A stretch of 51,747 bases of DNA, taken from positions 1 through 51,747 of the forward strand of contig CAMUML010000031.1 in assembly GCA_947089855.1 (NCBI GenBank), read 5' to 3'. The stretch comes from an uncultured Eubacterium sp. (lineage in GTDB: Bacteria > Bacillota > Clostridia > Lachnospirales > Lachnospiraceae). Both the position numbers and the translations under genes were made by a program. A model generated the notes under the pieces. That model was not told the DNA's origin, searched no databases, and saw only the letters and a list, made by a program, of their open reading frames with translations. Below, piece after piece: positions 2,796-45,930 of the stretch (position 1 is the first letter of the stretch; each line of letters starts with the position of its first letter).

Positions 2796-2910
2796 TTCTT
2801 TATCCCTCTATCCTGTCATTTTTATATCTGATGCCGGCGTACCGTAAGCCCTTGGCAAACGCCATCCGCCTGCTGGCCCAGACATAGCCATATAACTTAT
2901 GCCGCCTGCA

Positions 2911-5232: not shown

Positions 5233-5296
5233 ACTGATCACCTGCTTTCCCGGCTTGCTTTCTTTGTCTTATTTCTGTCAATATCGATAATTATGA

Positions 5297-5325
5297 ATTA
5301 TACTCAATTTACTGGAAAATTGCAA
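5297..5325 (-). promoter_or_regulatory. Sigma-A promoter of relA
   Basis: On the minus strand TTGCAA (5320-5325) and TATAAT (5297-5302) are separated by exactly 17 bp and lie about 65 bp before the relA start. Confidence 0.75.
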
Positions 5326-5365
5326 CGATTGTATGAAATTTATTATGGCGGCAAATTTATGATAC

Positions 5366-5395
5366 AGGGCGATATTGAAAATCCGCTTCGCAAAA
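5366..5395 (+). repeat. Decayed copy of the double-hairpin repeat (family 1, copy A)
   Basis: GGGCGATATTGAAAATCCGC followed by TTCGCAAAAC matches the second hairpin of the family-1 element seen at 29.1, 43.9 and 48.3 kb. The first hairpin and the ends are not recognisable, so this is a remnant. Confidence 0.5.
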
Positions 5396-5443
5396 CCAGC
5401 CCATAAATCGTAACCAGCTGTTACTAGCCACGGATAATGGTAC

Positions 5444-5782
5444 TCAAACCATATCCACAATAGGATGCTGTACCCATATCTGCTTCTCATACAGCCCCAT
5501 TTTCAGCAGCTCTGGCATCTGGCTATCAAAAGCTTCCTGAACTTTATATTCTTTTAGCAGTTTTAGCAGGTACGATTCTTTTTCGTTTTTGGGTTCATAG
5601 CCTGTAAGCAGGGGGCTTATAAATGCCTCCAGTTCCTTTGGTACTGGCGCCTGCTGCGGAATCTGGCCTGCCAGATGGCATAATAAACCGCCTGCATAGT
5701 AAAATTCATAATTGCCCATTAAAATCGAGGCATTTAAGGTACATTTAATAATGACGCTCTGCCTCGCAAGGATTACTTCCAT
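5444..5782 (-). CDS. DUF3837-like small protein
   Basis: A 112-residue cytoplasmic protein with no membrane segment. The opening (MEVILARQSVIIKCTLNASILMG...YYAGGLLCHL) resembles, from memory, the DUF3837 proteins of clostridia, whose function is unknown. AAGGGG lies eight bases before the ATG. It sits alone between relA and the sugar importer operon. Confidence 0.6.
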   Translation of the reverse strand: MEVILARQSVIIKCTLNASILMGNYEFYYAGGLLCHLAGQIPQQAPVPKELEAFISPLLTGYEPKNEKESYLLKLLKEYKVQEAFDSQMPELLKMGLYEKQIWVQHPIVDMV

Positions 5783-5903: not shown

Positions 5904-6752
5904 CTATTCTTTGACACCGCCAAGCGTTACGCCGGCGATAATATACTTCGATAAAATGAGATATACGATAATAATCGGGACAATGGCTACCGTAATCATC
6001 ATGTAAATTTTAGCCATATCAAAATTCATATAATCCGCGCTACGCAGCGTAGCAATAAGAATTGGAACCGTCATCTTTTCCTTCGATTGGATCACCAGTG
6101 CAGGGACGAAATAATTGTTCCACGAACCTACGAAGGTAAATATTGCCTGTACCGCAACCGCCGGCTTCATAATCGGAAGGACGATCCGGTTAAATGTTTT
6201 AAATTCCCCCGAACCATCGATCCTCGCTGCTTCAATCAATGACAGCGGAAGCGACGACTGCAAATAGCTGTACATAAAGTAAAAGACAGACGGGGATGCA
6301 ATGGATGGGATAATCAGCGGAAGCAACGAATCATACATCCCCATATTGGTAACCAGCCGTAAAAACCCCATTGCCGTAACCTGGGTCGGCATAACCAAAA
6401 TAGCCATAATAAATGTAAATGCCGCTTTCTTTCCTTTAAAGTCATATGCATACAAGCCATAAGCGGTCAATGCGGAAAAATAAGTACAGATCGCCGCCGA
6501 ACATCCGGAAACCAGCAGGCTGTTTAAAATACCCCGGAACATCGGGAAGGTACCGTCATTTGCAACATTGCTTAAGTTTTCCAGTAAATGTGACCCTGGC
6601 AGCGCCGAAAACCCTTTCTGCAATTCTGCATGGGAACGTGTCGCATTTACAAACAGGATATAGAAAAAGAATAAGCACATAAATGACAGAAGGATAAGTA
6701 CGATATGTGCGAAAACGGTGCGCACACGATTGGCTACATTTGATTTCATCAT
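5904..6752 (-). CDS. Carbohydrate ABC transporter permease, MalG/LacG-like
   Basis: Inner permease of a CUT1-type sugar importer, 282 residues and about six membrane spans. The cytoplasmic EAA loop that docks on the ATPase is visible as EAARIDGSGEFKTFNRIVLPIMKPA-type sequence near residues 175-200. It follows the MalF-like permease by 12 bp and closes the operon. No ATPase gene is in the operon, so an MsiK-type shared ATPase encoded elsewhere must energise it (inference from CUT1 systems). Confidence 0.92.
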   Translation of the reverse strand: MMKSNVANRVRTVFAHIVLILLSFMCLFFFYILFVNATRSHAELQKGFSALPGSHLLENLSNVANDGTFPMFRGILNSLLVSGCSAAICTYFSALTAYGLYAYDFKGKKAAFTFIMAILVMPTQVTAMGFLRLVTNMGMYDSLLPLIIPSIASPSVFYFMYSYLQSSLPLSLIEAARIDGSGEFKTFNRIVLPIMKPAVAVQAIFTFVGSWNNYFVPALVIQSKEKMTVPILIATLRSADYMNFDMAKIYMMITVAIVPIIIVYLILSKYIIAGVTLGGVKE

Positions 6753-6764
6753 CGAATCTCCTTT

Positions 6765-7715
6765 CTACCTCCTGGCTTTTTTGGCAGCTTTTTTTGCCGC
6801 TGCCTTCGATCCATCCGGATCGTTATTATTGGTCATACGGTACACAATAAAACATAAAATACCGCTGACGATAAACAGATAAACGGATAATGCACCTGCC
6901 ATGCCGTAATTTTTACTCTTAAGGTGGCTATTTAGGAACATAATCAATGTCATGGACGTACGGTCTGGGCTCCCCTGCCCGTTCGTCAAGATCTGCGGCA
7001 CATCGAACATCTGCAGCCCGCCGATAATAGAAGTGATCAGTGTATAGGCGAGGATTGGCCGTATCAATGGCAATGTGATACGGAAAAACCGCTGTATGCT
7101 GTTGCAGCCATCCAGCTCCGACGCCTCAAAAATATCCGGGCTAATACCCATAATCGCAGCCATCAGCATAATAGTCGTATTCCCAAACCACATCAAAAAA
7201 TTCATAAACCCTACCAGTGACCTAGTCCCAAATACTGTCCCAAGGAAATCAAACGGCTTGCTGATTACCCCTAGCGACATTAAAATAGAATTAATCGGCC
7301 CGTTCGTAGAAAACATGGTAAAAAACAACATCGCAAACGCAGAGGCCATGATCAGGTTTGGCAGGTATATAACTACCTTAAAAAATTGTGTCCCACGGAT
7401 TTTCAAACGGGCGTCTACAAACCAGGATGCAAGCAGCAGCGCGATCACAATCTGCGGGATAAAGCCAATAATCCATAAAATAAATGTATTTCCCGCATAC
7501 TTAAGCATATCTGACGATAGCAGGCTGGTATAATTTTCCATTCCAATGAAATTCGGGCCGATTTCTTTAATCCCGGAACGATAATATTCGAAAAAACTGT
7601 ACCGGACCGTATCTACCAAAGGAATCAAAGAAAATATGAAAAAACTGGCAAAAAACGGAAGAATAAAAATATATCCCCATTTTGCATAACTGACGCTTTT
7701 ACTTTTTGGTTTCAT
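6765..7715 (-). CDS. Carbohydrate ABC transporter permease, MalF/UgpA-like
   Basis: Permease of 316 residues with about six spans. The EAA loop is present (EASELDGCNSIQRFF...LPLIRP). The C-terminus is lysine- and alanine-rich (AAAKKAAKKARR), which is common in clostridial homologues. It is the middle gene of binding protein - permease - permease, and probably pairs with the next gene to form the channel. Substrate is inferred only from the neighbouring GH94 enzyme: an oligosaccharide, likely a beta-linked gluco-oligosaccharide. Confidence 0.92.
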   Translation of the reverse strand: MKPKSKSVSYAKWGYIFILPFFASFFIFSLIPLVDTVRYSFFEYYRSGIKEIGPNFIGMENYTSLLSSDMLKYAGNTFILWIIGFIPQIVIALLLASWFVDARLKIRGTQFFKVVIYLPNLIMASAFAMLFFTMFSTNGPINSILMSLGVISKPFDFLGTVFGTRSLVGFMNFLMWFGNTTIMLMAAIMGISPDIFEASELDGCNSIQRFFRITLPLIRPILAYTLITSIIGGLQMFDVPQILTNGQGSPDRTSMTLIMFLNSHLKSKNYGMAGALSVYLFIVSGILCFIVYRMTNNNDPDGSKAAAKKAAKKARR

Positions 7716-7776: not shown

Positions 7777-9174
7777 TTATTCTGGCCACTGGACTTTGGT
7801 AAGTTCTGGATAACGTTCTATAATCGCTGTTTCAAAGTTTTCCTTTGCTTTCGCAAATTCAACCTGCCCCTGGAAATAATCACTAAACGCGTTCTGGATC
7901 AGTTCCACGCATCCTTGGTCATACGCTGACAATGGCGCTATAACAACCTTTTCTGCAACTGGGGTAAAATATTTAAATGCGTTCTGGCCGCCGAGGAATT
8001 TGGATGCATACACCTTGTCATTTTCTGCTGCTTTCTTCATATTGGTTTTCGCATTTGTATAATCGGAATATTTCTCAGAAATTTTTGCAAGGTTTTCTTC
8101 ATTTGCAGTCATTGCAAGGATAATATCCTTTACATGTTGCGGATTATCAGTCCCTGTGCATGCATGGATATAAGATCCGCCCCAATTATACTCCTGCGGC
8201 GGGTTGGTAACTGCCCATTCCCCTTCTGCGCCGTCCCAATTTTTCTTTAATGTAAAATCAATGCCCCATGCTGGAAATAGGAACGCGAATACTTTTGATT
8301 TTGACCCCATTGCTTTATTCCAGTCATCGTTAAACTGCCCTTTGACCGTCTTATCGAAATACCCCGCGTCTAGCCATTCCTTTGAATCGTTGATCCAGTC
8401 CATAATTTTTTGGTCTATTACGACCGTTGTTTCACCCGGGCTGACCCAAGGCTGTCCAATGCTGTTGCCATATAGCCGGAAGGTGTCTGCATAAGAAGAA
8501 AACGTATAATACCCCTTCTCTTTTAATTCTTTTGCTGTTTCTTTCATCGTATCCCAGTCTTTTACCTTTTCTCCGATTGTAACCGGGTCGTCTGTCCCAA
8601 AGGCCTCCTTTGCAATATCACGCCGGTATACCAGCAGCCCTGGGCAGCACTGCCAGGTTGACGCCCTTTGCACACCATTCACATCCGAAGCGGTCACTTT
8701 CGTAAAGTCATACTGGTCTGCTAAATCTTTTTCTGGATCAATCCCAAGGTCTACAAGCGGCATTGCGACATCTGCTTCTGCATCTGTATATTTATTTACA
8801 TAATCTGTTTCTGACAAAAAAATATCGACCTTATCGTCAGCTTCCGCGTCTGCCTGCTTTAAAAGCGCCTCATCCAGCTTCTGCTGGTATACCCCATCCT
8901 GGTTTGGGTTTGTAATCCAATGGATTTCCGTCCCATCTTTTAGCGTTGTTACGGTCCCGTCTTTAGAAGTCTTTTCTACTTCTGGATAGACGTCCTGCAA
9001 GCGTTGGCTGAATTCACTGTTCCAGCTATAAATATTAATTACTTTGCCTTCTGGCATCTCGGGCTGCCCTGCCCCATTTCCCTGTGTCTGTGCATCCGGC
9101 TCTTTCCCACAACCAGACAATGCACCGGCAGCCATTGCTGCCACTAATAACATACTGGCCACTTTCTTTTTCAT
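7777..9174 (-). CDS. Extracellular sugar-binding lipoprotein of the ABC importer
   Basis: Family 1 solute-binding protein of 465 residues. The N-terminus has a lysine-rich start, a hydrophobic core and the lipobox LSGC with the lipidated cysteine at 22, so it is anchored outside the membrane. It delivers substrate to the two permeases encoded after it. Conserved W/F/Y-rich segments fit sugar stacking (for example FAFLFPAWGIDFTLKKNWDG). The leader contains a TATAAT box without a good -35 box and, upstream, the 19-bp motif shared with two other operons, so transcription probably needs an activator. Confidence 0.9.
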   Translation of the reverse strand: MKKKVASMLLVAAMAAGALSGCGKEPDAQTQGNGAGQPEMPEGKVINIYSWNSEFSQRLQDVYPEVEKTSKDGTVTTLKDGTEIHWITNPNQDGVYQQKLDEALLKQADAEADDKVDIFLSETDYVNKYTDAEADVAMPLVDLGIDPEKDLADQYDFTKVTASDVNGVQRASTWQCCPGLLVYRRDIAKEAFGTDDPVTIGEKVKDWDTMKETAKELKEKGYYTFSSYADTFRLYGNSIGQPWVSPGETTVVIDQKIMDWINDSKEWLDAGYFDKTVKGQFNDDWNKAMGSKSKVFAFLFPAWGIDFTLKKNWDGAEGEWAVTNPPQEYNWGGSYIHACTGTDNPQHVKDIILAMTANEENLAKISEKYSDYTNAKTNMKKAAENDKVYASKFLGGQNAFKYFTPVAEKVVIAPLSAYDQGCVELIQNAFSDYFQGQVEFAKAKENFETAIIERYPELTKVQWPE

Positions 9175-9219: not shown

Positions 9220-9281
9220 ATTATAACGGCATATATTCCGTCCTATATACTAGATAAGTTCAAAAAATATCAAAATGATGC
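9220..9281 (-). promoter_or_regulatory. Importer promoter with shared 19-bp operator (site 1)
   Basis: On the minus strand GCATCATTTTGATATTTTT (9263-9281) lies 37 bp before a TATAAT box (9220-9225), with no convincing -35 box. The same motif at nearly the same distance precedes the GH94 gene at 11.7 kb and the chemoreceptor operon at 18.8 kb. This is the layout expected for an AraC-type activator; the divergent regulator at 12.1 kb is the obvious candidate. Confidence 0.6.
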
Positions 9282-9291
9282 CCCATATATC

Positions 9292-11706
9292 TTAAGACAT
9301 CTCCAACACAATTTCCGAGTGGCTTTTGAGCATTTGATATGGAATATAGTTCCCTTCCAGTTCTTCCCCATCTACTACAAGCCTTTTGCAGCCAGACTGG
9401 GCATGCCTTGGGTTATGGATGGTAATATGTAAATGTTTTCCCCTAAAATCCTTTTCTATTTCAAACCTGTCCCAGCCATTTGGAACCGCTGGCTCTATTT
9501 TCAGCCCATAGAAATCTGGCCGCATCCCTAAGATCCCTTCTACACAGCCTGTCATAATTGTCGATGCTGTACCCGTAAGCCAATGTACATGGGACCGCCC
9601 AAAATACGGGCTGTCTTTTCCTTCTGTAAACTGTCCATAGCAATATGGCTCTAATTTACGGATCTGCGCCTGGTTATTTTGCGCTGCCGGCGCATGTTCC
9701 ATAAAATAAGTAAATGCACGGTCCCCATGCCCGCATAAAGCTTCAGCAAGGATCAGCCAGCCCTGCGGCTGGGAAAAAATACCAGCATTTTCTTTTGTCC
9801 CTGCATTGTAAATAACGGCCAACGCCCCTTCAAACGCATGTTCATGGTATGGCGGCGCCATCAGCATTGCCCCATATTCGGTATTCAGCCTTTGGAATAC
9901 GCTATCCAATGCCATATCCGCCTGTCTTTTATTTGCAAGCCCGCTGATTACCGCCCAGCTCTGCGGGTTCAGCCACATATTCGCCTCTGGGTCTGCCCGT
10001 TGCCCAATCCTCTCCCCTTTTTGTGTAAACCCGCGGATAAACCGGTCTTCATCCCAGCAAAATTCCTGTATGGCACTGCCCAGCTTTTCTTGTTCCTTGT
10101 CCAGGTAATGGATATAGCCAGTATCTTTTTTGTATTCGGCAAACTTTTTTAAGATGCCCATAGCATAATAAAGCTGGAACGCAACAAAGGTAGATTCCCC
10201 TTTTTCCCCTAGCCTTAAACAGTCGTTCCAGTCTGCATATAGCCCCGCCGGCATCCCGTGTGCTCCAAGGCGGTTCAAGGAAAAGTCAACCGCACGTTTT
10301 AAATGCCCATAAACGCTTGCCTCCCCTTTATTTGCAAACGGTATTACTTCATCGATAAAAGAAAGGTTGCCGGACTCCGCGATATATTTATAAACTGTCG
10401 GGAACAGCCACAGTGCATCATCTGCCCGGTACTGCGGATGCCCGGTCGCCTTTACGTAAGACGCATCATCCGGCGTATCCTCATGCCCAGGGTTATGGGT
10501 AAACTTTACCAATGGCAGCCCGCCGCCATGTTCTACCTGCGCAGAAAGCATAAAGCGGATTTTTTCCACCGCCATTTCCGGCGCCAAGTGGATAATCCCC
10601 TGTATATCCTGTACCGTATCCCGGTATCCATATCCATTGCGCAAGCCACAATAGAAAAAGGACGCAGCGCGTGACCAGATAAACGTCATAAAACAGTTGT
10701 ATGCATTCCACGTATTCACCATTGTATTGAATTCCGGGCTTGGCGTTTTTACTTGAAAGTGCATAAATTTTTCATGCCAGTAGCGGATCAGCCCGTTGTA
10801 ATCCTGTTCACAAGGTTTGCACGGATCCCCATATTTTTTAAGGATCTTTTCTGCCTGCGCATCACTTTGCATCCCAAGGATAAATACTAGGTGCTTTCCC
10901 TCCCCTGGCGCAAGCTTGATTACAGAAGAAAGCGCGCCGCAGGCATTTCCGTTATAATTCAGTTCCCCGGATAATTTTCCTTGTATAACCCCTTCTGGAT
11001 TTCCGTATCCATGATAATGCCCAAGGAATTTTTCCTTATCGCCGCAATAAGAAGAAACGTCTGCCCCGGCCATTCCAAAAAACCGCTCTATCATAATCTT
11101 ATCGTCGACATCTTTTCCGTCTTCTACCCCGTCCAGGTTGCCATGTATCTTCTGGCAAATACGGTTGCCATGGAACTCCGTCTTCGTGATAAACTGTGAA
11201 TACTGCAAGTTTACCTGGTCTTGTTCATAATTGCTGTTATTTGTAAATTCTGCATACCCGGTAACACATAAATCACGCGGCAGTCCGGATTGATTGGAAA
11301 GCGACAGGCTCCACACCTCATACGCCTGCCCCAGCGGCACATAATACAGCACTTGCGAATGGATACCGCTGTAATCCGCCGTCATTTTCGTATAACCTGT
11401 CCCGTGGCGGCACTCGCAACGGTAGGTTTCCAGGCCCTTCCCAACCGGCTGCCAGGAAGCTGACCAGTAATCTTTGGAATCATTGTCCCGGATATAAATA
11501 TAACGCCCCGGCTGGTCAAACTGGTTAAAAATATAACGCAGGATCCTGCCGTCCGCCCCGGATTTTGCGAAACTGTAGCCGCCCGCATTATTGGAAATAA
11601 TCGCGCCATATTCCGGTGAACCAAGGTAATTGACCCACGGGGCCGGCGTATCTGGGCGGTTAATGGCATATTCCCGTTTGTCATCATCAAAATACCCAAA
11701 CTGCAT
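9292..11706 (-). CDS. GH94 glycoside phosphorylase (cellodextrin/laminaribiose-type; substrate uncertain)
   Basis: Intracellular inverting phosphorylase of 804 residues that should split a beta-linked disaccharide or oligosaccharide with phosphate to give a sugar 1-phosphate. The catalytic aspartate is D495 in the ADWNDCLRLG motif; the phosphate-site region YRDTVQDIQG (361-370) and the TGTAS block near the C-terminus are present. N-terminal sequence FGYFDDDKREYAINRPDTPAPW is typical of the family. It differs from the classical cellobiose phosphorylase at 49.1 kb in the acceptor-site loops (HNPGHEDTPDD...TGHPQYRADDALW), so a different acceptor is likely; chain length and linkage cannot be read. 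GGAGG lies before the ATG. A 154-bp repeat separates it from its probable operator. Confidence 0.88.
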   Translation of the reverse strand: MQFGYFDDDKREYAINRPDTPAPWVNYLGSPEYGAIISNNAGGYSFAKSGADGRILRYIFNQFDQPGRYIYIRDNDSKDYWSASWQPVGKGLETYRCECRHGTGYTKMTADYSGIHSQVLYYVPLGQAYEVWSLSLSNQSGLPRDLCVTGYAEFTNNSNYEQDQVNLQYSQFITKTEFHGNRICQKIHGNLDGVEDGKDVDDKIMIERFFGMAGADVSSYCGDKEKFLGHYHGYGNPEGVIQGKLSGELNYNGNACGALSSVIKLAPGEGKHLVFILGMQSDAQAEKILKKYGDPCKPCEQDYNGLIRYWHEKFMHFQVKTPSPEFNTMVNTWNAYNCFMTFIWSRAASFFYCGLRNGYGYRDTVQDIQGIIHLAPEMAVEKIRFMLSAQVEHGGGLPLVKFTHNPGHEDTPDDASYVKATGHPQYRADDALWLFPTVYKYIAESGNLSFIDEVIPFANKGEASVYGHLKRAVDFSLNRLGAHGMPAGLYADWNDCLRLGEKGESTFVAFQLYYAMGILKKFAEYKKDTGYIHYLDKEQEKLGSAIQEFCWDEDRFIRGFTQKGERIGQRADPEANMWLNPQSWAVISGLANKRQADMALDSVFQRLNTEYGAMLMAPPYHEHAFEGALAVIYNAGTKENAGIFSQPQGWLILAEALCGHGDRAFTYFMEHAPAAQNNQAQIRKLEPYCYGQFTEGKDSPYFGRSHVHWLTGTASTIMTGCVEGILGMRPDFYGLKIEPAVPNGWDRFEIEKDFRGKHLHITIHNPRHAQSGCKRLVVDGEELEGNYIPYQMLKSHSEIVLEMS

Positions 11707-11773
11707 ATCTATCTGCCCTCCTGTAACTTTTCTTTTTACCGTGTAAGTACTGATGCCCAGATGCGTTTACTTA

Positions 11774-11927
11774 GGAACTGTGCATAAATAACTTGTACAT
11801 CTGACTTGTCTAAATTTCCATCCACTGCGTTGTCGTCAATCGGCGTACGCCCAGTACGCCTCATTCCTCCGCCTTGTGCATGAATATTTATCCTGCGCCA
11901 TCTGCACAAGTTATTTTGCACAGTCCC
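11774..11927. repeat. Family-2 MITE-like element, copy 1
   Basis: A 154-bp non-coding element with imperfect 26-bp terminal inverted repeats (left end GGAACTGTGCATAAATAACT, right end complementary). It is flanked by TTA on both sides (11771-11773 and 11928-11930), a 3-bp target duplication. Its interior matches copy 2 at 45.8 kb in reverse orientation, at about 85 percent by eye. It sits between the GH94 gene and the promoter region shared with the AraC gene, so 11707-12126 holds this element plus the regulatory region and no gene. Confidence 0.85.
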
Positions 11928-11972
11928 TTAGAAGCCCGTCTTGGCATACAGCCTGTACCACGGTTATTTACG

Positions 11973-12033
11973 ATTATAAATATCCTACGCATTTTGATAT
12001 ATTAAACTATGTACAAAAATATCAAATTCATGC
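11973..12033 (-). promoter_or_regulatory. GH94 promoter with shared 19-bp operator (site 2)
   Basis: On the minus strand GCATGAATTTGATATTTTT (12015-12033) lies 36 bp before a TATAAT box (11973-11978) reading toward the GH94 gene at 11.7 kb. A partial copy of the motif runs the other way (GCATTTTGATATATT on the plus strand), so the divergent region carries an inverted pair and could also control the AraC gene. Confidence 0.6.
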
Positions 12034-12039
12034 TATAAT
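12034..12039 (+). promoter_or_regulatory. -10 box of the AraC regulator gene
   Basis: TATAAT on the plus strand directly abuts the 19-bp operator (site 2), about 88 bp before the ATG. No clear -35 box is visible. Binding at the operator would cover this box, so autorepression is plausible. Confidence 0.5.
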
Positions 12040-12126
12040 ATAGCCAATGCAGGCTGCTAACCCGCAGCTTCCAGTACCACCACACTGGCGCCCCCATACG
12101 GCGTATACCCAGAAAGGAAGCAAAGG

Positions 12127-12867
12127 ATGGATTTACGAAAAGAATGGAACCGTCAGGAACTTCAGGATGCAGAAGATTCCCTTGCGCACCGCCCAATGGA
12201 AGAAGAATTTGCGTTTTACCATGCCGTCAGTTCCGGCGATATAAATTTTGTACAAAAAAACTGCAAACAGAATACCTTCGCCAACCCGGCTGGAATGGGC
12301 GTCCTCTCGACAAACCCCCTTACCAATATAAAATATCATTTTGTTGTCACAGCAGCCATGATTGTCAGGCACTGCGTGGAAGCAGGAATGGAATTGGAAC
12401 AGGCGTACCGCCTAAGCGATTTTTATATTTTAAAAATGGACTCCTGTACCTCCATAGAGTCCATTTATAAGCTGCATGACAGCATGGCGCTTGATTATAC
12501 CGGGAAAATGCTAGTTCAAAAAAAGGAAAGCGTAATATCCAAAGCCGTTATCCTGTGCATGGATTATGTCTACAACCATTTAAACACCCGCATCACAATT
12601 GAAGAACTTGCCGCTTTTACAAACCTGTCCCCTAGTTACCTGTCAAGGCTATTTAAAAAAGAGCTTGGGATTTCCATCAGTAATTACATAAATGAAAAGA
12701 AAATAGAAAAAGCACGCAACCTGTTGAAATACTCCGATTACAGCTTCGTAGAAATTGCAAATTACCTGGCTTTTTCTTCACAAAGCCATTTTATCCAATC
12801 GTTTAAGAAATCGGTTGGGCTTACCCCCAAAAAATACCGGGATAAGTTTTACCGTACTTCTTGGTAA
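12127..12867 (+). CDS. AraC-family transcriptional regulator
   Basis: DNA-binding regulator of 246 residues. The C-terminal 100 residues contain both AraC helix-turn-helix units: TIEELAAFTNLSPSYLSRLFKKELG and the second with DYSFVEIANYLAFSSQSHFIQSFKKSVGLTPKKYR. The N-terminal 140 residues are a helical domain without a cupin pattern, of the kind often seen with sugar operons in Lachnospiraceae. It is divergent from the GH94 gene and lies between two carbohydrate operons that share an operator motif, so it is the likely regulator of both. AAGGAAG precedes the ATG. Confidence 0.9.
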   Translation: MDLRKEWNRQELQDAEDSLAHRPMEEEFAFYHAVSSGDINFVQKNCKQNTFANPAGMGVLSTNPLTNIKYHFVVTAAMIVRHCVEAGMELEQAYRLSDFYILKMDSCTSIESIYKLHDSMALDYTGKMLVQKKESVISKAVILCMDYVYNHLNTRITIEELAAFTNLSPSYLSRLFKKELGISISNYINEKKIEKARNLLKYSDYSFVEIANYLAFSSQSHFIQSFKKSVGLTPKKYRDKFYRTSW

Positions 12868-12905
12868 TATATACTGCACACCAGTTAAATTTACAGTACC
12901 ACCCG

Positions 12906-12968
12906 ACTGCAGGCCGCCAGCCAGGCACTTTCTTGGTTACATTACGGTATATTCTGGCGGGCTGCAGT
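12906..12968. repeat. Long inverted repeat after the AraC gene
   Basis: ACTGCAGGCCGCCAG (12906-12920) pairs with CTGGCGGGCTGCAGT (12954-12968) with one mismatch across a 33-base loop. No T run follows on either strand, so it is not an ordinary terminator; it lies between convergent genes and may act in mRNA protection or as part of a compound terminator. Confidence 0.5.
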
Positions 12969-12980
12969 ATAAAAACAAAA

Positions 12981-13016
12981 GCGGAATACCCATCCGGTTC
13001 CTATTGGATATTCCGC
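12981..13016 (-). terminator. Terminator of the SBP-chemoreceptor-GH94 operon
   Basis: GCGGAATA and its complement, extended by a few further pairs, form a hairpin followed on the minus strand by CTTTTGTTTTTA. It lies 75 bp after the stop of the 900-residue GH94 gene. Confidence 0.6.
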
Positions 13017-13052
13017 CCGAAACAAACCGCAGTTACACTGCAATGGTTAGGC

Positions 13053-13071
13053 AGCCCGCCAGCTGCGGGCT
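13053..13071 (+). terminator. Weak hairpin near the end of the AraC transcript
   Basis: AGCCCGC and GCGGGCT form a 7-bp stem followed by only TTT on the plus strand, so termination here would be weak. Confidence 0.35.
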
Positions 13072-13090
13072 TTCCCTGCCCCCCCCCATT

Positions 13091-15793
13091 TTAAACTCTG
13101 CCTACATCGATTTCGATTGTATGTACCTGACCTGCCATAGACATGATCTTTTCCCTTTCAAGGACAGCATACGCCCCATAAACCGGCAATTGCATATGCC
13201 CGTCACAAATTGCCTTTTTTATTATATATTCCCCATAATCCAGCCTTTCTGGATTTTTATAAATGACCTGGAACTTGCTACCTGCAAAAACAAGCTCTAT
13301 CGCTGCCTTGCCCTGCGCATCAAACTGCCCTGCTACCAGTTTTGGCTGGATAGCCATATCGCCGATTTTACCGCATACGCCAAATACTTCCGTAACCATC
13401 GTCAGCATATACCAGCTTGCAGCCCCGGTTAGATAATGGTACATCCCTCTCCCTTCCCGGCTAAAATACTCAGGGATCCCTGGATATATTTTGCTGGTTT
13501 CAAACTGCATAGCCGCATCCGCCAGTGACTGCAGCGCCTGGTACCCTTCTTTTACAAACCCCCTTTGATACAATGCATTTGCATACATCACAGCCATATG
13601 GCAAAAAACCGCGCCATTTTCTTTTTCCCCATATGCAAAGCCAAACATCCTGCCCATATCATACTTTTGTTCCTGAAAATCTGTGTTCAGGCGGTAGCCG
13701 CCCGCTTTTTTATCATATAAATAATGGCCGGCGCTTTGGCAGATGCCCGCAACCTGCTCTTTCCTTGCAATCCCGCCCATAATTGCAAACACCTGGCCGG
13801 TCAGCATCATCCGCACGCCCTGTGGGAAGTACCCTTCCACCGCTTTTCCGTGGTTATCATAATAGCTGTTAAACCAGCCTTCCCCTTCTCCTTGGATCCA
13901 CTCCGTTTTGCGGATATGCTGCTGCATCCATGCTGCCTTATGCTTTAAATTATCCGCAAGCCCTTTGACATCCACCTGGATCTGCCTGCCGCTCACCTGA
14001 TGCCTGCACAGCTGCAGATAGCCCTGCAGGATTTTCTTTTTTTCATCCACATCATGATAAATACACGCTTGATCCGTTAAAAGCACCTGCATTTCTTCTA
14101 AAAGCAGCGTTGTTTGAACGCCAAAGCGTTCTGACAAAATTTCCAGGAAATTTGCAAGCTGCATCAGGTTGCCCGCATAAGCGCAAGTAAAAGCTACACT
14201 TTCGCCGCGTTCCTCTGCCATATCCAACGCGTCATTCCAGTCCGCCCCTCTAAGCCTGATATGGTTGTGTTCCCCCACTTCATAAAAAGCGCATAGATGC
14301 TGCAATAATAAATGCTCCAGAATACTCCCGTAATAAGTTTCCCCATTTATACATGCCAGCTGCGTCCCATCGGATATATGCCAGCTACTGTCCAGGCTGC
14401 TGCCGCGCCCTGTCTGCCCGTCTTTAAAATACGGCGCTTTTTCTTTTAAAATGCCAATATCGCCGGTCTGGTTAATATAAAGCCTGATCGTCATAAATGG
14501 CCATACCCCATGATCCATCCAAACACGTGCGATGCCGTTGCGGTCCGCAATAAATTCCCCCTGTTTTGCCCCGATAATTGTTGCATTGCTCCCGTCCACA
14601 CGCACGCCTGCGCAATTGTCTAAAATCATCTGGCGCACGCCATCCGGATCCATAATCAGAAGCGACAGGCAATCCTGCCATAAGTCCCTCCACCCTCTGC
14701 CGCCCCTGCCATAATCATGGTACGGCAAAAAAGAACAGCCATAGATCCGCCGTAAAATAGGCTGGAAATTCACCCATCTCATAAAGTTGTCAAAATCCGC
14801 ACTGCTTGTATGGTAACGGACGTTTACCTTTTCCTGCCAATACCTGCTTGTCTGTCCGAGGGATTGCTTTACCTGGCCAGCTGTCCGGTAAGCGCCAACA
14901 ATACCCTCTATCTCTTCTTCCTGTGCTGTAATGCCCATAATAACCGTATAAGATACCTGCTCCTTTGGGCCAACGCTAACTTTTTGGAAACGGATGCCAC
15001 CAATTGCTTCCTTTCCTTCAAAATAGCTTCCGGCTGCTGCCCCATCCCCATTTTCCCGGATTTTCTGAGGATTGGTATAACTGCCGCCTTCCCCGATATA
15101 ATCTTCCACGACCGGATAGAAATCCAATGGCTTTTCCCCATTTCCAGTAATGCCGCAAACAAAATACGTTAGTTCATTGACCTGGTGCCCGCGCTCATCA
15201 AAAGACAACGCCGGCTTTACGTATACCCCATAATCAGCCGTCCGGATCCGGTGCAGCAATGAAGTCACATGCCTGTGGTCACGGATATTATCGGCACTCC
15301 GCCCAAAAATAGGCACTGCTGCCACCGGCGTAAAGGCCAGCGGGCTGCCGCCCAAATTACAGAGTGACACCTGCATAATTTCTACATTGTGCCCCGTCGG
15401 CACAAAGGAAACGACTTCTGCCTCCAGTTGATATTTTTCAGATTTCCGGTACATAGTATGCCACATAAACCCTGCTTTTAGGCTGCTTTCATCCTGGCTT
15501 TCTGTAAATTTCTGGCTTTCTTGCCCTACCGACGCCCCTACCGCAGACCACATGCCCCCGTCTTCCATCCTGCACCAAAAATTCCTCCCAGAACGGTTGT
15601 TATGCAGGTTTTCCACACTGGCCGGCTCCATCAGGAACGCGTTTTGGTTCACCTTGCTGTCCCCTCCCAGATTTGGCGTCAGCGCACATTTCATCCCGGC
15701 TTCCCCAGCAACCGGGAAATAAAGGTAACTGTAATTTTCCGGCTTTTTAATCGTAAACGTCCCATCATTATCTAAAAAATTTATGGTTTTCAT
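13091..15793 (-). CDS. Divergent GH94-type glycoside phosphorylase, 900 residues
   Basis: Glycoside phosphorylase-like protein. The catalytic aspartate is D521 in [16 protein letters not shown], and [10 protein letters not shown] (366-375) corresponds to [10 protein letters not shown] of cellobiose phosphorylase. The N-terminal sandwich domain is unlike the two other GH94 proteins here: it starts [22 protein letters not shown] and has the [19 protein letters not shown] segment. It belongs to a longer, GH36-type-annotated subgroup whose substrates I cannot name. There is no signal peptide, so it acts inside the cell. Its ATG overlaps the stop of the chemoreceptor gene by 3 bases (ATGA-type overlap), showing translational coupling. 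Specificity is open. Confidence 0.8.
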
Positions 15794-17808
15794 ATTCCAT
15801 CCCCCTTATGTATTTTAAATATACCAATTTGCCCAGTAAGCTTTTGCGCAGAATCTGACAGCTCCTTGGATTGCTGCGCTACCGATTCGCTGCTGGCCAT
15901 TAGGCTGTCCGCATGGGCAGCCAAAGAATCCGAAGCATTCAAGATCTGCTCTGAACTTGCTGCCTGTTCTTGCGAAATCGCCGCTACGTCAGCCGCTACA
16001 GTATCCACACATGCTACTTTTTCCATCATTTCCTGGATCAAGTTTCCAACTGCCGCTATATTTTCATATATATGATCAAAAGTCCCCATCGCATGCTGGA
16101 TCATACCGTTGCTTTCATTAATATTGCCAACACTGTCATCCGCCTGGTGTATGGCATCCCCGACAGACGTGTTAATCTTCATTATTAAATTGTCAATATG
16201 TTTCACCGACTCCATGCTGGTTTTTGCCAATTTTCCAATTTGCGCAGCCACTACTGTAAAACCTTTCCCTGCTTCCCCCGCCCGGGCCGCTTCGATCGAA
16301 GCATTTAATGACAACAGGTTTGTTTCATCTGCAATATCCCCAATCACTTTTGTAATCTGGATGATTTCTTCCGATGAGGCCCCCACTTCATCAATCGCAT
16401 TTTGCAGTTTCTTCACCGAATGGTCTATATTGCGCATTGCAACGTCCACACACTGCATATCCTGCTTTCCTTTTTGAGAAACATGGACCATTTCCTTCAT
16501 TCTTCCATTTACATCCTCACCGTTATCTTTTGCTTCCGATGCCGCCCCTGCCAAGTCGGATGCGCTTTGCGCAATCTGGCCGACTGAAACAGAAAGCTGT
16601 TCTACCGTGACGTTAAGGTCTTTCATAGATTGGCTCTGTTTTTTAGACGCTTCCAGTACTTGCCTGGACACTTCCCCGCCATTGTCTGCCTGCTCATGAA
16701 GCGCATTTGTAATGTTATGGATCGTCGTAATCATTGCACACATCGCCGCAGTAAACGTTTCCATGCACTGGCTCATCACGCCGATTTCATCATTACTTTT
16801 CGTATGGATGGATACGGCAAAATCGCCGCTTGTCATTGCCTTTACCACTTTCGTTAAATCCTTTACTGGTAAGATTACAATATGTATCGTCCGCTCAACC
16901 AAAACCAGCAATATCAATACCGAAACGACCCCAAACACCACCATAATATTACGGATATGGTCTAGTTCGCCAAACAACGTTGCTGACGGCACATAAGAAA
17001 CCAGCAGCCACTCCGTGCCCTCTACCTTTTCAAACACAGCCATTTTCCCGGTTATTTCGGCCATCCCTAAGTCATCCTCTAAAATCTTGGCTGCCACAGC
17101 CTGCATAAATTCTCCGTCGATCTCGTCTATCCTTTTAGAAATCAGGCTGGTATCCCTGGATGCAAGGACCGTATTGTCTTGCGTATTTACCAAAAATGCT
17201 TCTGCATCTTTCATTTTTACAAAACTGTTTACAAAAACGCTGACCTTTTCCAAAGATAAATCGGCCGAAAGGATACGGACGCCCCCTTTTTGGTTCCGCA
17301 GCATCCCGCAGGCGCTGATCACCTGTTTTCCATCTTCCCTTATATATGCATTGGTAAACCCCATATTAACCCTGGTCAAACCGCTTTGAAACCATTCCGG
17401 CCTAACCTCATCTAAAGATACCCTTGTATTGCCTGCAATATCCGCCTGCTGCGCCTGGTAAAACGTACCGTCCAAATCGGCTGCATATATTCCATCTGGA
17501 TAATTGCTGTTATAGCCATAAAAAGCATTGAGGCAATCCTGAAATTGTTTTCCATCAAAATCCATCTGCTCCAGCACATGTTTTACTACTTGGAAAGATG
17601 TTAAATTTTGATCCAACCAAGACTTAATTTCCAATGCCTGGCTTTCCGCCGACATTTCCAAAAGTGCCTGGGCATCTGACCAAATTACATTTCTAGACAC
17701 AAAATAAGACAGGCCGACAAGCACCGTAACCATTACGATAACCACAGGCAAGATCAATGCAAGCAGTTTTGTTTTTACAGAGATAAATTTTTTTTGTTTC
17801 CTTTTCAC
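15790..17808 (-). CDS. Methyl-accepting chemotaxis protein with large extracellular sensor
   Basis: Transmembrane chemoreceptor of 672 residues. Membrane spans are near residues 13-37 and 285-308; the roughly 245-residue extracellular part looks like a Cache domain ([18 protein letters not shown]...[13 protein letters not shown]). A HAMP domain follows ([19 protein letters not shown]) and then the signalling hairpin with the conserved tip ([23 protein letters not shown]). A GTG start is used, 12 bases after GGAGG. It lies between a lone sugar-binding lipoprotein and a GH94 enzyme in one operon, which suggests that it senses the same sugar, perhaps through the loaded binding protein (inference). 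Confidence 0.92.
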
Positions 17809-17873
17809 GAATCTGTCCAGCCTCCACTCCTAAAGCACAGTAACCAAGCCTGATAAAGATAACCGCAGCGTCC

Positions 17874-18848
17874 TTATTGGTATTGCGCTACATTTTCAGC
17901 GTCTACTTTTTCAAAAGGGATAAAAATATACTTCCCATCTTCTGAAGCGCCTTCCATCCCTTCGATTGTACTTCCTTCCTGCAGCCTCTTTGCCGCCTCT
18001 ACTGCAGCTTCCATTTGCTTTGCTACTGCCTGGTATACAGTAAAATCCATTTTACCATCGGCGATTGCTTCACAGCCCTTTTCCGAAGCGTCGACCCCCA
18101 AAAACAGTGTCTGGCTTTTCGCAATGCCTGCTTTTTCAAAGGCTGCGATACCACCTAACGCCATATCATCGTTATTTGCCGCAATGCAGTCCACTGGCTT
18201 GCCCGTTTCCAAAAACAGCTGAACCATTTCTTCGGCAAGCTCTTCCTTCCAATCTGCATAATCTTCAAATACGTAGTTAATTTTCTTGCCGCTGGCTTTC
18301 AGCGTCTGTTTCAGCCCTTCTGTCCGTCCACGTGTCCCGGAAGCGTCTTTTGGCCCTTTTAACAATACAATATTAATCTCATCTTTATGGCCCAGCTTTT
18401 CCAATATATATTCGGCCTGGTACTGCCCCGCCATAAATTCATCGGATGCCACATAAATATAGCGGCCTTTTTCAAGCTGGTTTTCTTTCGGTGCATTATT
18501 GATAAATATGATTGGCGTTTGCCCGGCCGCTGCTTTTATTTCAGGGGCAATATCCGCCTGTACCAGACCGCACAAAAATACGCTGTATCCGTCCGCAAAT
18601 GCTTTTTTTACTTGGCCAGCCTGCATTTCTACTGACTTTTCCGCATAGCCAGCCTTAAACGCAAACCCAAATTTCCCAGCCTGCCCTTTTAACCCTGTCG
18701 CCCACCCTTCATAATAATCGCCGCTTTCCATTGCAGCATAATACATTTTTTTGCCTTCCGCCCCTGCTGCTTTCGAGCCCTGGCACCCGCTTATCAAAAC
18801 TGCCGCCAGCAATGAAACCAAAATTACTGCCCCGGTCTTCCCCCGCAT
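17874..18848 (-). CDS. Sugar-binding lipoprotein, RbsB-like (Peripla_BP_4)
   Basis: Periplasmic-binding-fold protein of 324 residues with a lipoprotein signal peptide (lipobox ISGC, cysteine 22). The two-lobe pattern of pentose/galactose binding proteins is visible: the TPIIFINNAP region, GRYIYVASDEFMAGQYQAEYI, CIAANNDDMALGGIAAFEKAG and LFLGVDASEKGCEAI. The ATG at 18848 is preferred over the upstream TTG because GGAGG lies seven bases before it. No permease or ATPase gene accompanies it; the next gene is a chemoreceptor, so a role as a sensor subunit is likely. The AraC-type operator lies upstream. Confidence 0.88.
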   Translation of the reverse strand: MRGKTGAVILVSLLAAVLISGCQGSKAAGAEGKKMYYAAMESGDYYEGWATGLKGQAGKFGFAFKAGYAEKSVEMQAGQVKKAFADGYSVFLCGLVQADIAPEIKAAAGQTPIIFINNAPKENQLEKGRYIYVASDEFMAGQYQAEYILEKLGHKDEINIVLLKGPKDASGTRGRTEGLKQTLKASGKKINYVFEDYADWKEELAEEMVQLFLETGKPVDCIAANNDDMALGGIAAFEKAGIAKSQTLFLGVDASEKGCEAIADGKMDFTVYQAVAKQMEAAVEAAKRLQEGSTIEGMEGASEDGKYIFIPFEKVDAENVAQYQ

Positions 18849-18878
18849 AAACCTGCCTCCGTCCAACAATTTTGTTTC

Positions 18879-18939
18879 ATTTTATCTTCTTAAAATAAAC
18901 ATATATATCAAATTCCTGAAAAAAATGTCAAATCCATGC
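18879..18939 (-). promoter_or_regulatory. Chemoreceptor operon promoter with shared 19-bp operator (site 3)
   Basis: On the minus strand GCATGGATTTGACATTTTT (18921-18939) lies 36 bp before TAAAAT (18879-18884), with no clear -35 box. A second half-site, GGAATTTGATATATATG, follows one start-to-start period of about 20 bp later, as AraC-type activators often require. Confidence 0.6.
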
Positions 18940-18972: not shown

Positions 18973-19401
18973 TTAACCGTTTGAATACCCATTGATAAAA
19001 TAGAACAGGCATCCGCCCATTTTCCCAAGGGCAATCGCCCCCAGCATCCATTCCAGCCCCATTTTTAGCTTGAGCCTGCGGTACATGATCGGATAGGCAT
19101 TGATAATCTCTGCCAATGCAACCGCCATACATCCGACAAAGATGCCGGCGCTTAACCCAAACATCCCTAGCACAAAATGCCCCACCGGAAAATGGATTGC
19201 CGGATAAACTGCTAAGATATTTCCAACGACCCCTCCGCATATAGTAGCATTTTCATACGTTATAATATGCTTTGCCGTCTTTGACTTCTTTGCCATCTGC
19301 GGTATAATGCCCAGTTTCACCGCAATGGCAAAGCTGCCGGTCGCAACCGACAGCCCGCAGGCAAGCCCTAAAAACCCAAGAAACACATGTTGCAGCCACA
19401 T
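18973..19401 (-). CDS. spoVAB: Stage V sporulation protein AB
   Basis: A 142-residue integral membrane protein with about four spans, of normal SpoVAB length. The pattern FLGLACGLSVATGSFAIAVKLGIIPQMA and ALAEIINAYPIMYRRLKL is typical. SpoVA proteins of the spore inner membrane take part in movement of dipicolinate during sporulation and germination; the exact role of AB is not known. AAGGAGG precedes the ATG. It is downstream of spoVAA in the same transcription unit. The AC, AD and AE genes are not in this window. Confidence 0.9.
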   Translation of the reverse strand: MWLQHVFLGFLGLACGLSVATGSFAIAVKLGIIPQMAKKSKTAKHIITYENATICGGVVGNILAVYPAIHFPVGHFVLGMFGLSAGIFVGCMAVALAEIINAYPIMYRRLKLKMGLEWMLGAIALGKMGGCLFYFINGYSNG

Positions 19402-45627: not shown

Positions 45628-45782
45628 AAAAATATAGGAAATGGATCTTCCATATAGTCCGGAAAACCCCAAAAATAATCTTAGTACTATAATGCAAATA
45701 CAAATTTTGAAAAAATAACGCTTGCTACTACTTCAACAACAATGAAATCATCGATAAAAGTTACAAAGCTACCAAACACTAA

Positions 45783-45930
45783 GGAACTGTCAGAAAATAA
45801 CTTGTGCAGATGACGCAGGATAAATTTTCATATGCAAGGCGGAGGAATGAAGCGTAATGCACGTACGCTGATTGACGACAACGCAGCATATGGAAATTTA
45901 GACAAGTCAAATGCACAAGTTATTTTTTCC
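45783..45930. repeat. Family-2 MITE-like element, copy 2
   Basis: A 148-bp element with ends GGAACTGTCAGAAAATAACT and the complementary right end, flanked by TAA (45780-45782 and 45931-45933). Reverse-complemented, its interior matches copy 1. The gap 45628-46177 holds this element and a terminator and no gene. Confidence 0.85.

What the first reader, a model, noticed from the sequence alone, without database searches (positions are those of the whole stretch)
9220..18939. A shared 19-bp operator with fixed spacing defines a glycan sensing, uptake and phosphorolysis regulon
GCATSRWTTTGAYATTTTT occurs at 9263-9281, 12015-12033 and 18921-18939, all on the minus strand, and each lies 36-37 bp before a -10 box (TATAAT, TATAAT, TAAAAT) that lacks a good -35 box. 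The three promoters drive an ABC importer, a GH94 phosphorylase and an SBP-chemoreceptor-GH94 operon. The divergent AraC gene at 12.1 kb is embedded among them. Together they look like one activator-controlled system for an unidentified beta-glycan.
Basis: partly seen in the sequence, partly recalled or inferred. Interest (0 to 1): 0.72.

Follow-up and report, generated by a model that had tools for sequence, protein, structure and literature searches.

The report
Conserved AraC switch for cereal-glucan uptake
Three genetic switches in this bacterium share one conserved DNA docking site, and they appear to turn on import, breakdown and sensing of oat- and barley-type beta-glucan together under one neighbouring regulator.

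Summary
The 19-mer is the upstream half of a bipartite site: NCATGAWTTTGAYATTTTT, then a weaker TNRTATA copy 20 bp on that covers the -35 position, then a -10 box 36-37 bp after the 19-mer. A model of 22 such sites picks out the three window sites in the 4.08-Mb genome (E 5e-11 to 2e-8; next 0.047). In 13 genomes of the genus, 28 sites (E below 1e-5) lie in the 10 genomes with the AraC gene, none in the 3 without it. In 80 GH94 loci from named genomes, 79 of 85 hits directly precede regulon genes. The glycan can now be named: the 9292-11706 GH94 is the orthologue of BpGH94MLG (PDB 8BOU), which phosphorolyses mixed-linkage beta-(1,3/1,4)-glucan oligosaccharides; the second GH94 is laminaribiose phosphorylase-like. 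So this is a Blautia-type mixed-linkage-glucan locus, with an operator I found in none of the papers searched, plus a laminaribiose phosphorylase and a binding protein-chemoreceptor pair, but no GH16 endoglucanase found. The site before GH94 also overlaps the divergent araC promoter, predicting autorepression. The AraC N-terminus is predicted all-helical, not a cupin. Binding and activation are inferred, not shown.

The parts
9220..9281 (-). Operator-promoter 1, for the ABC importer: distal half-site 9281-9263, degenerate proximal half-site about 9254-9246, -10 TATAAT 9225-9220
   Evidence: model R1 E = 6.0e-10 in the whole genome; the matching site is present in 8 of the 9 same-genus relatives fetched, and the ninth (L065) shows no SBP1 gene in its stretch
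11973..12033 (-). Operator-promoter 2, for the GH94 gene: distal half-site 12033-12015, proximal TTTAATATA 12006-11998, -10 TATAAT 11978-11973
   Evidence: model R1 E = 4.8e-11
12010..12039 (+). Predicted araC promoter: -35-like TGTACA 12010-12015, 18-bp spacer that is the distal half-site, -10 TATAAT 12034-12039; predicts autorepression
   Evidence: Sequence; an opposite-strand TATAAT (5 or 6 of 6) abuts the operator in 10 of 10 araC-divergent sites of the genus against 1 of 16 other sites, and in 14 of 19 against 6 of 50 sites of the 80 loci, 3 of the 19 being sites already in the genus set
18879..18939 (-). Operator-promoter 3, for the SBP2-MCP-GH94 operon: distal 18939-18921, proximal TTTGATATA 18912-18904, -10 TAAAAT 18884-18879
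   Evidence: model R1 E = 2.3e-8
12127..12867 (+). AraC-family regulator, 246 aa: C-terminal double HTH, predicted all-helical N-terminal domain, no cupin
   Evidence: HTH_18 E 2e-22; model mean pLDDT 90.8, pTM 0.54, helices only; best PDB matches cover the DNA-binding domain
9292..11706 (-). GH94 phosphorylase, orthologue of BpGH94MLG (PDB 8BOU), for beta-1,4 linkages of mixed-linkage and cello-oligosaccharides; Asp495 at the general-acid place, Tyr633 where chitobiose phosphorylase has Val631
   Evidence: 1467 bits to 8bou over 801 residues; activity from PMC10318527
13091..15793 (-). GH94 phosphorylase, laminaribiose phosphorylase-like
   Evidence: 1018 bits to 6ggy over 895 residues
15790..17808 (-). 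Methyl-accepting chemoreceptor with an extracellular dCache-type domain, HAMP and MCP signalling domain
17874..18869 (-). MglB/RbsB-type sugar-binding protein (CUT2 type) with no CUT2 permease beside it; predicted ligand carrier for the chemoreceptor
   Evidence: Peripla_BP_4 E 4e-37; best PDB match an MglB, E 1.6e-23
7777..9174 (-). Lipoprotein-like binding protein of the importer (SBP1), 465 aa
   Evidence: No Pfam family; weak PDB matches to extracellular solute-binding proteins; position before the permeases
6765..7715 (-). ABC importer permease 1
   Evidence: BPD_transp_1 E 1e-10
5904..6752 (-). ABC importer permease 2 (no ATPase gene in the operon)
   Evidence: BPD_transp_1 E 4e-16

Best explanation
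The three promoters form one local regulon for mixed-linkage beta-glucan oligosaccharides, run by the short AraC-family protein at 12127-12867. The protein is inferred to bind a 20-bp direct repeat: a strong distal copy (CATGAWTTTGAYATTTTT) and a weak proximal copy (TNRTATA) that covers the -35 position. There it would stand in for the missing -35 box and recruit RNA polymerase to the -10 box 36-37 bp after the distal copy (class II activation, as known for AraC, MelR and XylS; recalled). It would switch on (a) the importer SBP1 and two permeases, (b) a GH94 that phosphorolyses beta-1,4 bonds of imported oligosaccharides to Glc-1-P plus cellobiose or laminaribiose, (c) a laminaribiose phosphorylase that takes the remaining beta-1,3 disaccharide to Glc-1-P, and (d) a binding protein and dCache chemoreceptor that steer the cell to the released sugar. 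At the araC-GH94 divergent region the same site fills the araC promoter spacer, so occupancy should also hold back araC. Shown: the site, its spacing, its near-confinement to these promoters, its conservation and co-occurrence with this AraC, and the homologies. Inferred: protein-DNA binding, activation, autorepression, the inducer, and the role of the chemoreceptor pair.
For: Only these three full sites stand out in the genome. In 13 genus genomes there are 28 sites (R1 E at most 8.5e-6, next 0.0024; R2 at most 1.5e-5, next 0.003) in the 10 genomes with the AraC and none in the 3 without it; 22 of the 28 trained R1 and 6 did not. In 80 GH94 loci 79 of 85 hits (E below 0.01) directly precede regulon genes; leaving out 8 training sites seen again, 72 of 77. 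In 200 family genomes, 12 have a hit below 1e-5; 11 carry the AraC at 53% identity or more and the 12th carries it in two pieces; each of the 12 has a hit on the AraC's contig within 7 kb of it. Offset-20 repeat: 5.69 of 8 matches against a mean of 2.58 over offsets (26 sites), and 5.52 against 2.56 in 63 unique sites of other loci, where the -10 gap is 36 in 52, 37 in 6, 34 in 4 and 42 in 1. An araC -10 abuts the operator mainly in araC-divergent sites. GH94 identity. In Blautia producta the GH94, importer and GH16 genes rise about 4- to 5-fold on barley beta-glucan while the AraC gene hardly changes (PMC10318527, section 4).
Against: No binding or expression data exist for this organism. At E up to 1e-3, 7 of 19 family genomes with this AraC have no hit, and 4 genomes without a match in the AraC search do: G197, which holds the AraC in pieces, and G178, G206 and G230, which have no regulon genes near the hit. 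Two of the 7, opened, have weak sites (E 0.011 and 0.016 in a small search). Twelve of 61 GH94 loci with AraC had no R1 hit, three of which a broader model recovered at E 0.007 or better. No GH16 was found in this genome at E up to 1e-6, so it may only scavenge oligosaccharides, or the gene may lie in the missing tenth of the assembly. The 53% identity cut was chosen after seeing the list; with the preset E cut of 1e-60 (33 genomes) the link is weaker (Fisher p 7e-8 instead of 1e-11). Genome scans score only a limited number of first-look candidates (150 per genome).
Confidence: 0.82

Rival explanations
1. The sites are real operators but belong to a different regulator; the neighbouring AraC is a passenger.
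For: No binding was tested. Seven GH94 loci with a hit show no AraC in the stretch held.
Against: Five of those seven stretches are whole short contigs or run to a contig end. AraC presence and site presence match in 13 of 13 genus genomes. The direct-repeat form fits AraC-family binding, and the araC promoter is built around the site.
Confidence: 0.1
2. The substrate is a chitin disaccharide (with laminaribiose, a fungal-wall diet) rather than cereal-type glucan, as the PDB name of the nearest structure, N,N'-diacetylchitobiose phosphorylase, suggests.
For: The name on PDB entry 8bou. Second best match is Vibrio chitobiose phosphorylase, 553 bits.
Against: 8BOU is BpGH94MLG, measured on cellotriose, G4G3G and G4G4G3G (passages of PMC10318527). 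That paper says its tyrosine 653 is a valine (V631) in chitobiose phosphorylase, crucial for chitobiose specificity. Window Tyr633 is residue 653 in 8bou numbering and lines up with the tyrosine of cellobiose phosphorylases; against the Vibrio enzyme HMMER places a one-residue gap there, and the match holds only if that gap is closed. Relatives carry GH16 with CBM4 in the regulon.
Confidence: 0.07
3. The three similar 19-mers are a chance or A/T-rich promoter feature (UP element plus -10) with no specific regulator.
For: The pattern is T-rich, and loose matches (up to 3 mismatches) are about twice as many as for the reversed pattern across the genome.
Against: The full site is nearly confined to regulon promoters in many genera, has a steady spacing, and is absent from genus genomes lacking the AraC.
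Confidence: 0.02

Closest known systems
Blautia producta ATCC 27340 mixed-linkage beta-glucan locus (BpGH16MLG, BpGH94MLG, AraC, BpSBPMLG, transporter genes; PMC10318527)
   Same: Orthologous GH94, an AraC-type gene and a binding-protein importer in one locus; induced on barley beta-glucan in B. producta.
   Different: No GH16 found in the window genome; an added laminaribiose phosphorylase; an added SBP-chemoreceptor pair; the operator, which the passages I read do not describe. I did not have the B. producta AraC sequence or promoters.
AraC/XylS-family class II activators on direct-repeat half-sites (AraC at araI, MelR, XylS; recalled)
   Same: Double HTH domain, two direct half-sites about two helical turns apart, proximal one over the -35, divergent own gene.
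   Different: No cupin sensor domain; a predicted all-helical N-terminal domain for which the whole-chain Foldseek search gave no close solved counterpart.
Laminaribiose phosphorylase of GH94 (PDB 6GGY/6GH2/6GH3)
   Same: Full-length match, 1018 bits.
   Different: Activity of the window protein not measured.
SBP-assisted sugar chemotaxis (MglB or RbsB with Trg; recalled)
   Same: MglB-like binding protein next to an MCP.
   Different: The MCP sensor is predicted to be a dCache domain; no CUT2 transporter sits beside it; it lies in a polysaccharide-utilisation regulon.

Membership tests
Blautia-type mixed-linkage beta-glucan utilisation locus | BpGH94MLG-type phosphorylase | tested here: met
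   full-length match to 8bou; Asp495 and Tyr633 correspond to its D515 and Y653 (offset 20)
Blautia-type mixed-linkage beta-glucan utilisation locus | AraC-type regulator and binding-protein importer in the locus | tested here: met
   (the importer's binding protein has no Pfam match; weak PDB matches)
Blautia-type mixed-linkage beta-glucan utilisation locus | Cell-surface GH16 endoglucanase with CBM4 modules | tested here: not met
   PF00722 gave no match at E up to 1e-6 in this genome, 89.7% complete. 5 of 13 genus genomes have one, and in four of them it sits in this locus
Blautia-type mixed-linkage beta-glucan utilisation locus | Induction by barley beta-glucan | not testable with these tools
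   Known for B. producta only (PMC10318527)
AraC/XylS transcription factors | C-terminal double helix-turn-helix domain | tested here: met
   HTH_18 79.7 bits, cut-off 33.6; PDB matches to AraC-type DNA-binding domains
AraC/XylS transcription factors | Cupin-type effector-binding domain (common but not universal) | tested here: not met
   No Pfam cupin listed up to E 10, though HMMER's filters drop most matches above 0.1; helices only in the model
AraC/XylS transcription factors | Operator of two direct half-sites about 20 bp apart | tested here: met
   (sequence level; protein binding not tested)
N,N'-diacetylchitobiose phosphorylase | Valine at Val631 of the Vibrio enzyme | tested here: not met
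   Tyr633 before the conserved GxKEN stretch, as in cellobiose phosphorylases; depends on where one gap is placed
Laminaribiose phosphorylase (GH94) | Full-length similarity to a characterised laminaribiose phosphorylase | tested here: met
Chemotaxis receptor | MCP signalling domain, HAMP and extracellular sensor in a flagellated organism | tested here: met
   MCPsignal and HAMP, dCache fold (Pfam dCache_1 only 19.4 bits, below its cut-off of 45), flagellin genes in 13 of 13 genus genomes

The most novel reading that the evidence does not exclude
A cupin-free, all-helical short AraC regulator defines a new sensing mode for dietary beta-glucan in Lachnospiraceae. It responds not to a sugar in a cupin pocket but through an unknown helical domain, perhaps to a phosphorolysis product or a partner protein. 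Through one conserved 20-bp repeat it ties uptake and two successive phosphorolysis steps to chemotaxis, so that oligosaccharide scavengers without their own endoglucanase swim to the grazing site of others.
Probability: 0.25. Interest if true: 0.62.

Novelty: new variant of a known kind. Interest (0 to 1): 0.46.

Why it matters
Mixed-linkage glucan from oats and barley is a daily dietary fibre, and genes that use it in a Firmicute are known, but I found no described operator for them in the library searched. A conserved, very specific site lets anyone list the regulon in the Lachnospiraceae and some Oscillospiraceae genomes that carry it. It makes the regulator testable in a tractable Blautia strain, and it shows chemotaxis genes placed in a glycan regulon.

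Tried and rejected
Chitin or fungal-wall reading of the first GH94: taken up from the PDB name, dropped after the paper behind 8BOU was found.

Inverted-repeat operator: site 2 alone suggests one (TTTGATAT ... ATATCAAA), but the stack of 26 sites favours a 20-bp direct repeat.

Further regulon members in the own genome: of the six places with two mismatches in the 19-mer, the full model lists two, at E 0.11 and 9, and the others not at all up to E 10.

RNA elements: no Rfam match at the gathering score and no tRNA in the window.

Papers: searches for this operator or for a chemoreceptor in such a locus listed nothing that names it. I saw listings and starts of abstracts only, except PMC10318527 (passages and section 4) and PMC5171806 (passages, not relevant). 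The regulon papers of Caldicellulosiruptor and Clostridium thermocellum and the review were not opened. Most subscription papers are outside that library.

The inducer was not modelled. The AraC N-terminal domain was not searched on its own.
Full report
What was checked. They are the only exact matches in the 4.08-Mb assembly, and the -10 boxes lie 37, 36 and 36 bp downstream. Because the pattern was fitted to the sites, I looked for independent evidence.

The site is bipartite. With the window's three, the genus gives 26 sites: 9 before the importer, 9 before GH94 or a GH16-GH94 pair, 5 before the laminaribiose phosphorylase and 3 before SBP2. Stacking them shows a second conserved block, TNRTATA, 20 bp after the first: the core TTTGAYAT agrees with the stretch 20 bp on at 5.69 of 8 positions, against a mean of 2.58 over offsets 10-49. 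In 63 unique sites (66 hits of at least 20 bits from the 80 loci described below, leaving out three records that match training genomes) the same offset again leads, 5.52 against 2.56; the gap to the best -10 is 36 in 52, 37 in 6, 34 in 4 and 42 in 1. These were found with a model that already contains the block, so they test its repeat character rather than its existence. The proximal block covers the -35 position, which explains the missing -35 box.

Specificity. A sequence-only model (R1) of 22 sites was run on whole genomes. In the own genome the three sites score E 4.8e-11, 6.0e-10 and 2.3e-8, and the next place 0.047. In 13 genus genomes 28 sites score at most 8.5e-6 with R1 and at most 1.5e-5 with the broader model R2; the next places score 0.0024 and 0.003. 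The 28 lie in exactly the 10 genomes that hold the orthologous AraC gene (three each, one in G011), and the 3 without it have none. Six of the 28 were not used to train R1; two of those, in G001 and G008, precede the binding-protein gene SBP2. Over 200 genomes of the family (two of them from the genus), 12 have a hit below 1e-5: 11 hold the AraC at 53% identity or more, and the twelfth (G197) holds it in two pieces beside the importer and both GH94 genes. In each of the 12 a hit lies on the AraC's contig within 7 kb. At E up to 1e-3, 16 genomes have hits, 12 of them among the 19 with the AraC (Fisher p 1.3e-11). Of the other four, one is G197 and three have no regulon gene near the hit; 7 of 19 AraC genomes have no hit. 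The 53% cut was chosen after seeing the list; with all 33 genomes at E up to 1e-60, p is 7e-8.

Spread. By their titles these are mostly Lachnospiraceae (among them Roseburia, Blautia, Mediterraneibacter), with some Treponema and Oscillospiraceae. R1 gives 85 hits at E below 0.01 in 1.36 Mb. By a mechanical rule (same-strand reading frame starting from 400 bp before to 500 bp after the hit's end) 79 precede SBP1 (48), laminaribiose phosphorylase (13), GH94 (12), GH16 (4) or SBP2 (2) homologues. Of the six others, three (L117, L124, L126) lie near contig ends, L175 and L190 precede a gene not labelled by my queries, and L179 is unexplained. Of 61 loci with AraC 49 have a hit; of 19 without AraC in the stretch 7 do. 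R2 found sites at E 0.007 or better in three of the 12 AraC loci that R1 missed (L134, L135, L191).

Autoregulation. In the window the araC gene is divergent from the GH94 gene, and its -10 (12034-12039) abuts the operator, whose distal half fills the 18-bp araC spacer. An opposite-strand TATAAT with at least 5 of 6 letters abuts the operator in 10 of 10 araC-divergent sites of the genus against 1 of 16 others. In the 80 loci it is 14 of 19 against 6 of 50 (69 of the 85 hits could be anchored; 3 of the 19 repeat genus sites, leaving 11 of 16). The natural reading is that occupancy activates the enzyme gene and holds back araC. That is inference. In Blautia producta the AraC gene changes little on barley beta-glucan while neighbouring genes rise (PMC10318527, section 4 read).

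The glycan. The GH94 at 9292-11706 matches 8bou end to end. The PDB calls it N,N'-diacetylchitobiose phosphorylase, but PMC10318527 (passages and section 4 read) states that 8BOU is BpGH94MLG, which phosphorolyses cellotriose, G4G3G and G4G4G3G. Its D515 and Y653 correspond to window D495 and Y633. The GH94 at 13091-15793 is laminaribiose phosphorylase-like. In B. producta laminaribiose is a product of the first enzyme, so the second would complete the phosphorolysis. Relatives add a probably secreted GH16 with CBM4 and a GH3 to the same locus. No GH16 was found in the own genome; 5 of 13 genus genomes have one. This strain may therefore live on oligosaccharides released by others, unless the gene lies in the missing part of the assembly.

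The sensors. The chemoreceptor's outer domain is predicted to have the dCache fold (model mean pLDDT 79.7 from six sequences), and SBP2 is MglB-like. The genus carries flagellin genes in 13 of 13 genomes. In two named-genome loci (L123, L172) the operator directly precedes SBP2, and in three more (L132, L136, L171) SBP2-MCP follows the importer genes. All 12 other genus genomes hold a homologous MCP at E below 1e-60. In the three copies outside the regulon that I opened (L232, L233, L236) an SBP2-like gene follows the MCP, so the regulon copy may be a recruited paralogue. The AraC model (mean pLDDT 90.8, pTM 0.54) is all helical. Foldseek's matches at E 0.001 or better align 94-115 residues of proteins with AraC-type DNA-binding domains, plus XylR over 148 columns at rmsd 14. 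What the regulator senses is open.

Verdict. An ordinary kind of system, a Gram-positive polysaccharide-utilisation locus already described in Blautia, with a highly specific and widely conserved operator not described in the papers I searched, two additions (laminaribiose phosphorylase, chemoreceptor pair) and an unusual regulator sensor domain.

Noticed in passing
11775-11940 and 45779-45925: A small mobile-element-like repeat (about 165 bp, inverted-repeat arms AAATAACTTGTRCA) sits between the GH94 promoter and its gene. A second copy, 87% alike, lies in the same window, and 18 partial matches occur in the genome. It lengthens the GH94 leader and might affect expression.
   Followed up: partly
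Genus genomes G001, G002, G007, G010 and the own genome: These hold the AraC regulon but show no GH16 endoglucanase, against G004, G005, G008, G009 and G011, which do (assemblies 89-97% complete): possible scavengers and degraders within one genus.
   Followed up: partly
12127-12867; TIGR04094 match: The AraC residues 24-238 align to the C-terminal part of the YSIRK-adjacent regulator model (135.6 bits, below its cut-off of 200): the helical domain may be a shared module of longer AraC regulators.
   Followed up: no
L065 (MCP reading frame 2882-5461), also L064, L123, L132, L136, L171: In some relatives the chemoreceptor homologue matches in two separate pieces (a break near residues 119-133 in L064 and L065), and in L065 the reading frame is 859 aa against 672 in the window: the sensor domain seems to carry an extra insert there.
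   Followed up: no
18973-19401: A SpoVAB gene lies directly upstream of the SBP2 promoter on the same strand, so the organism has sporulation genes and the regulon operon sits beside one.
   Followed up: no
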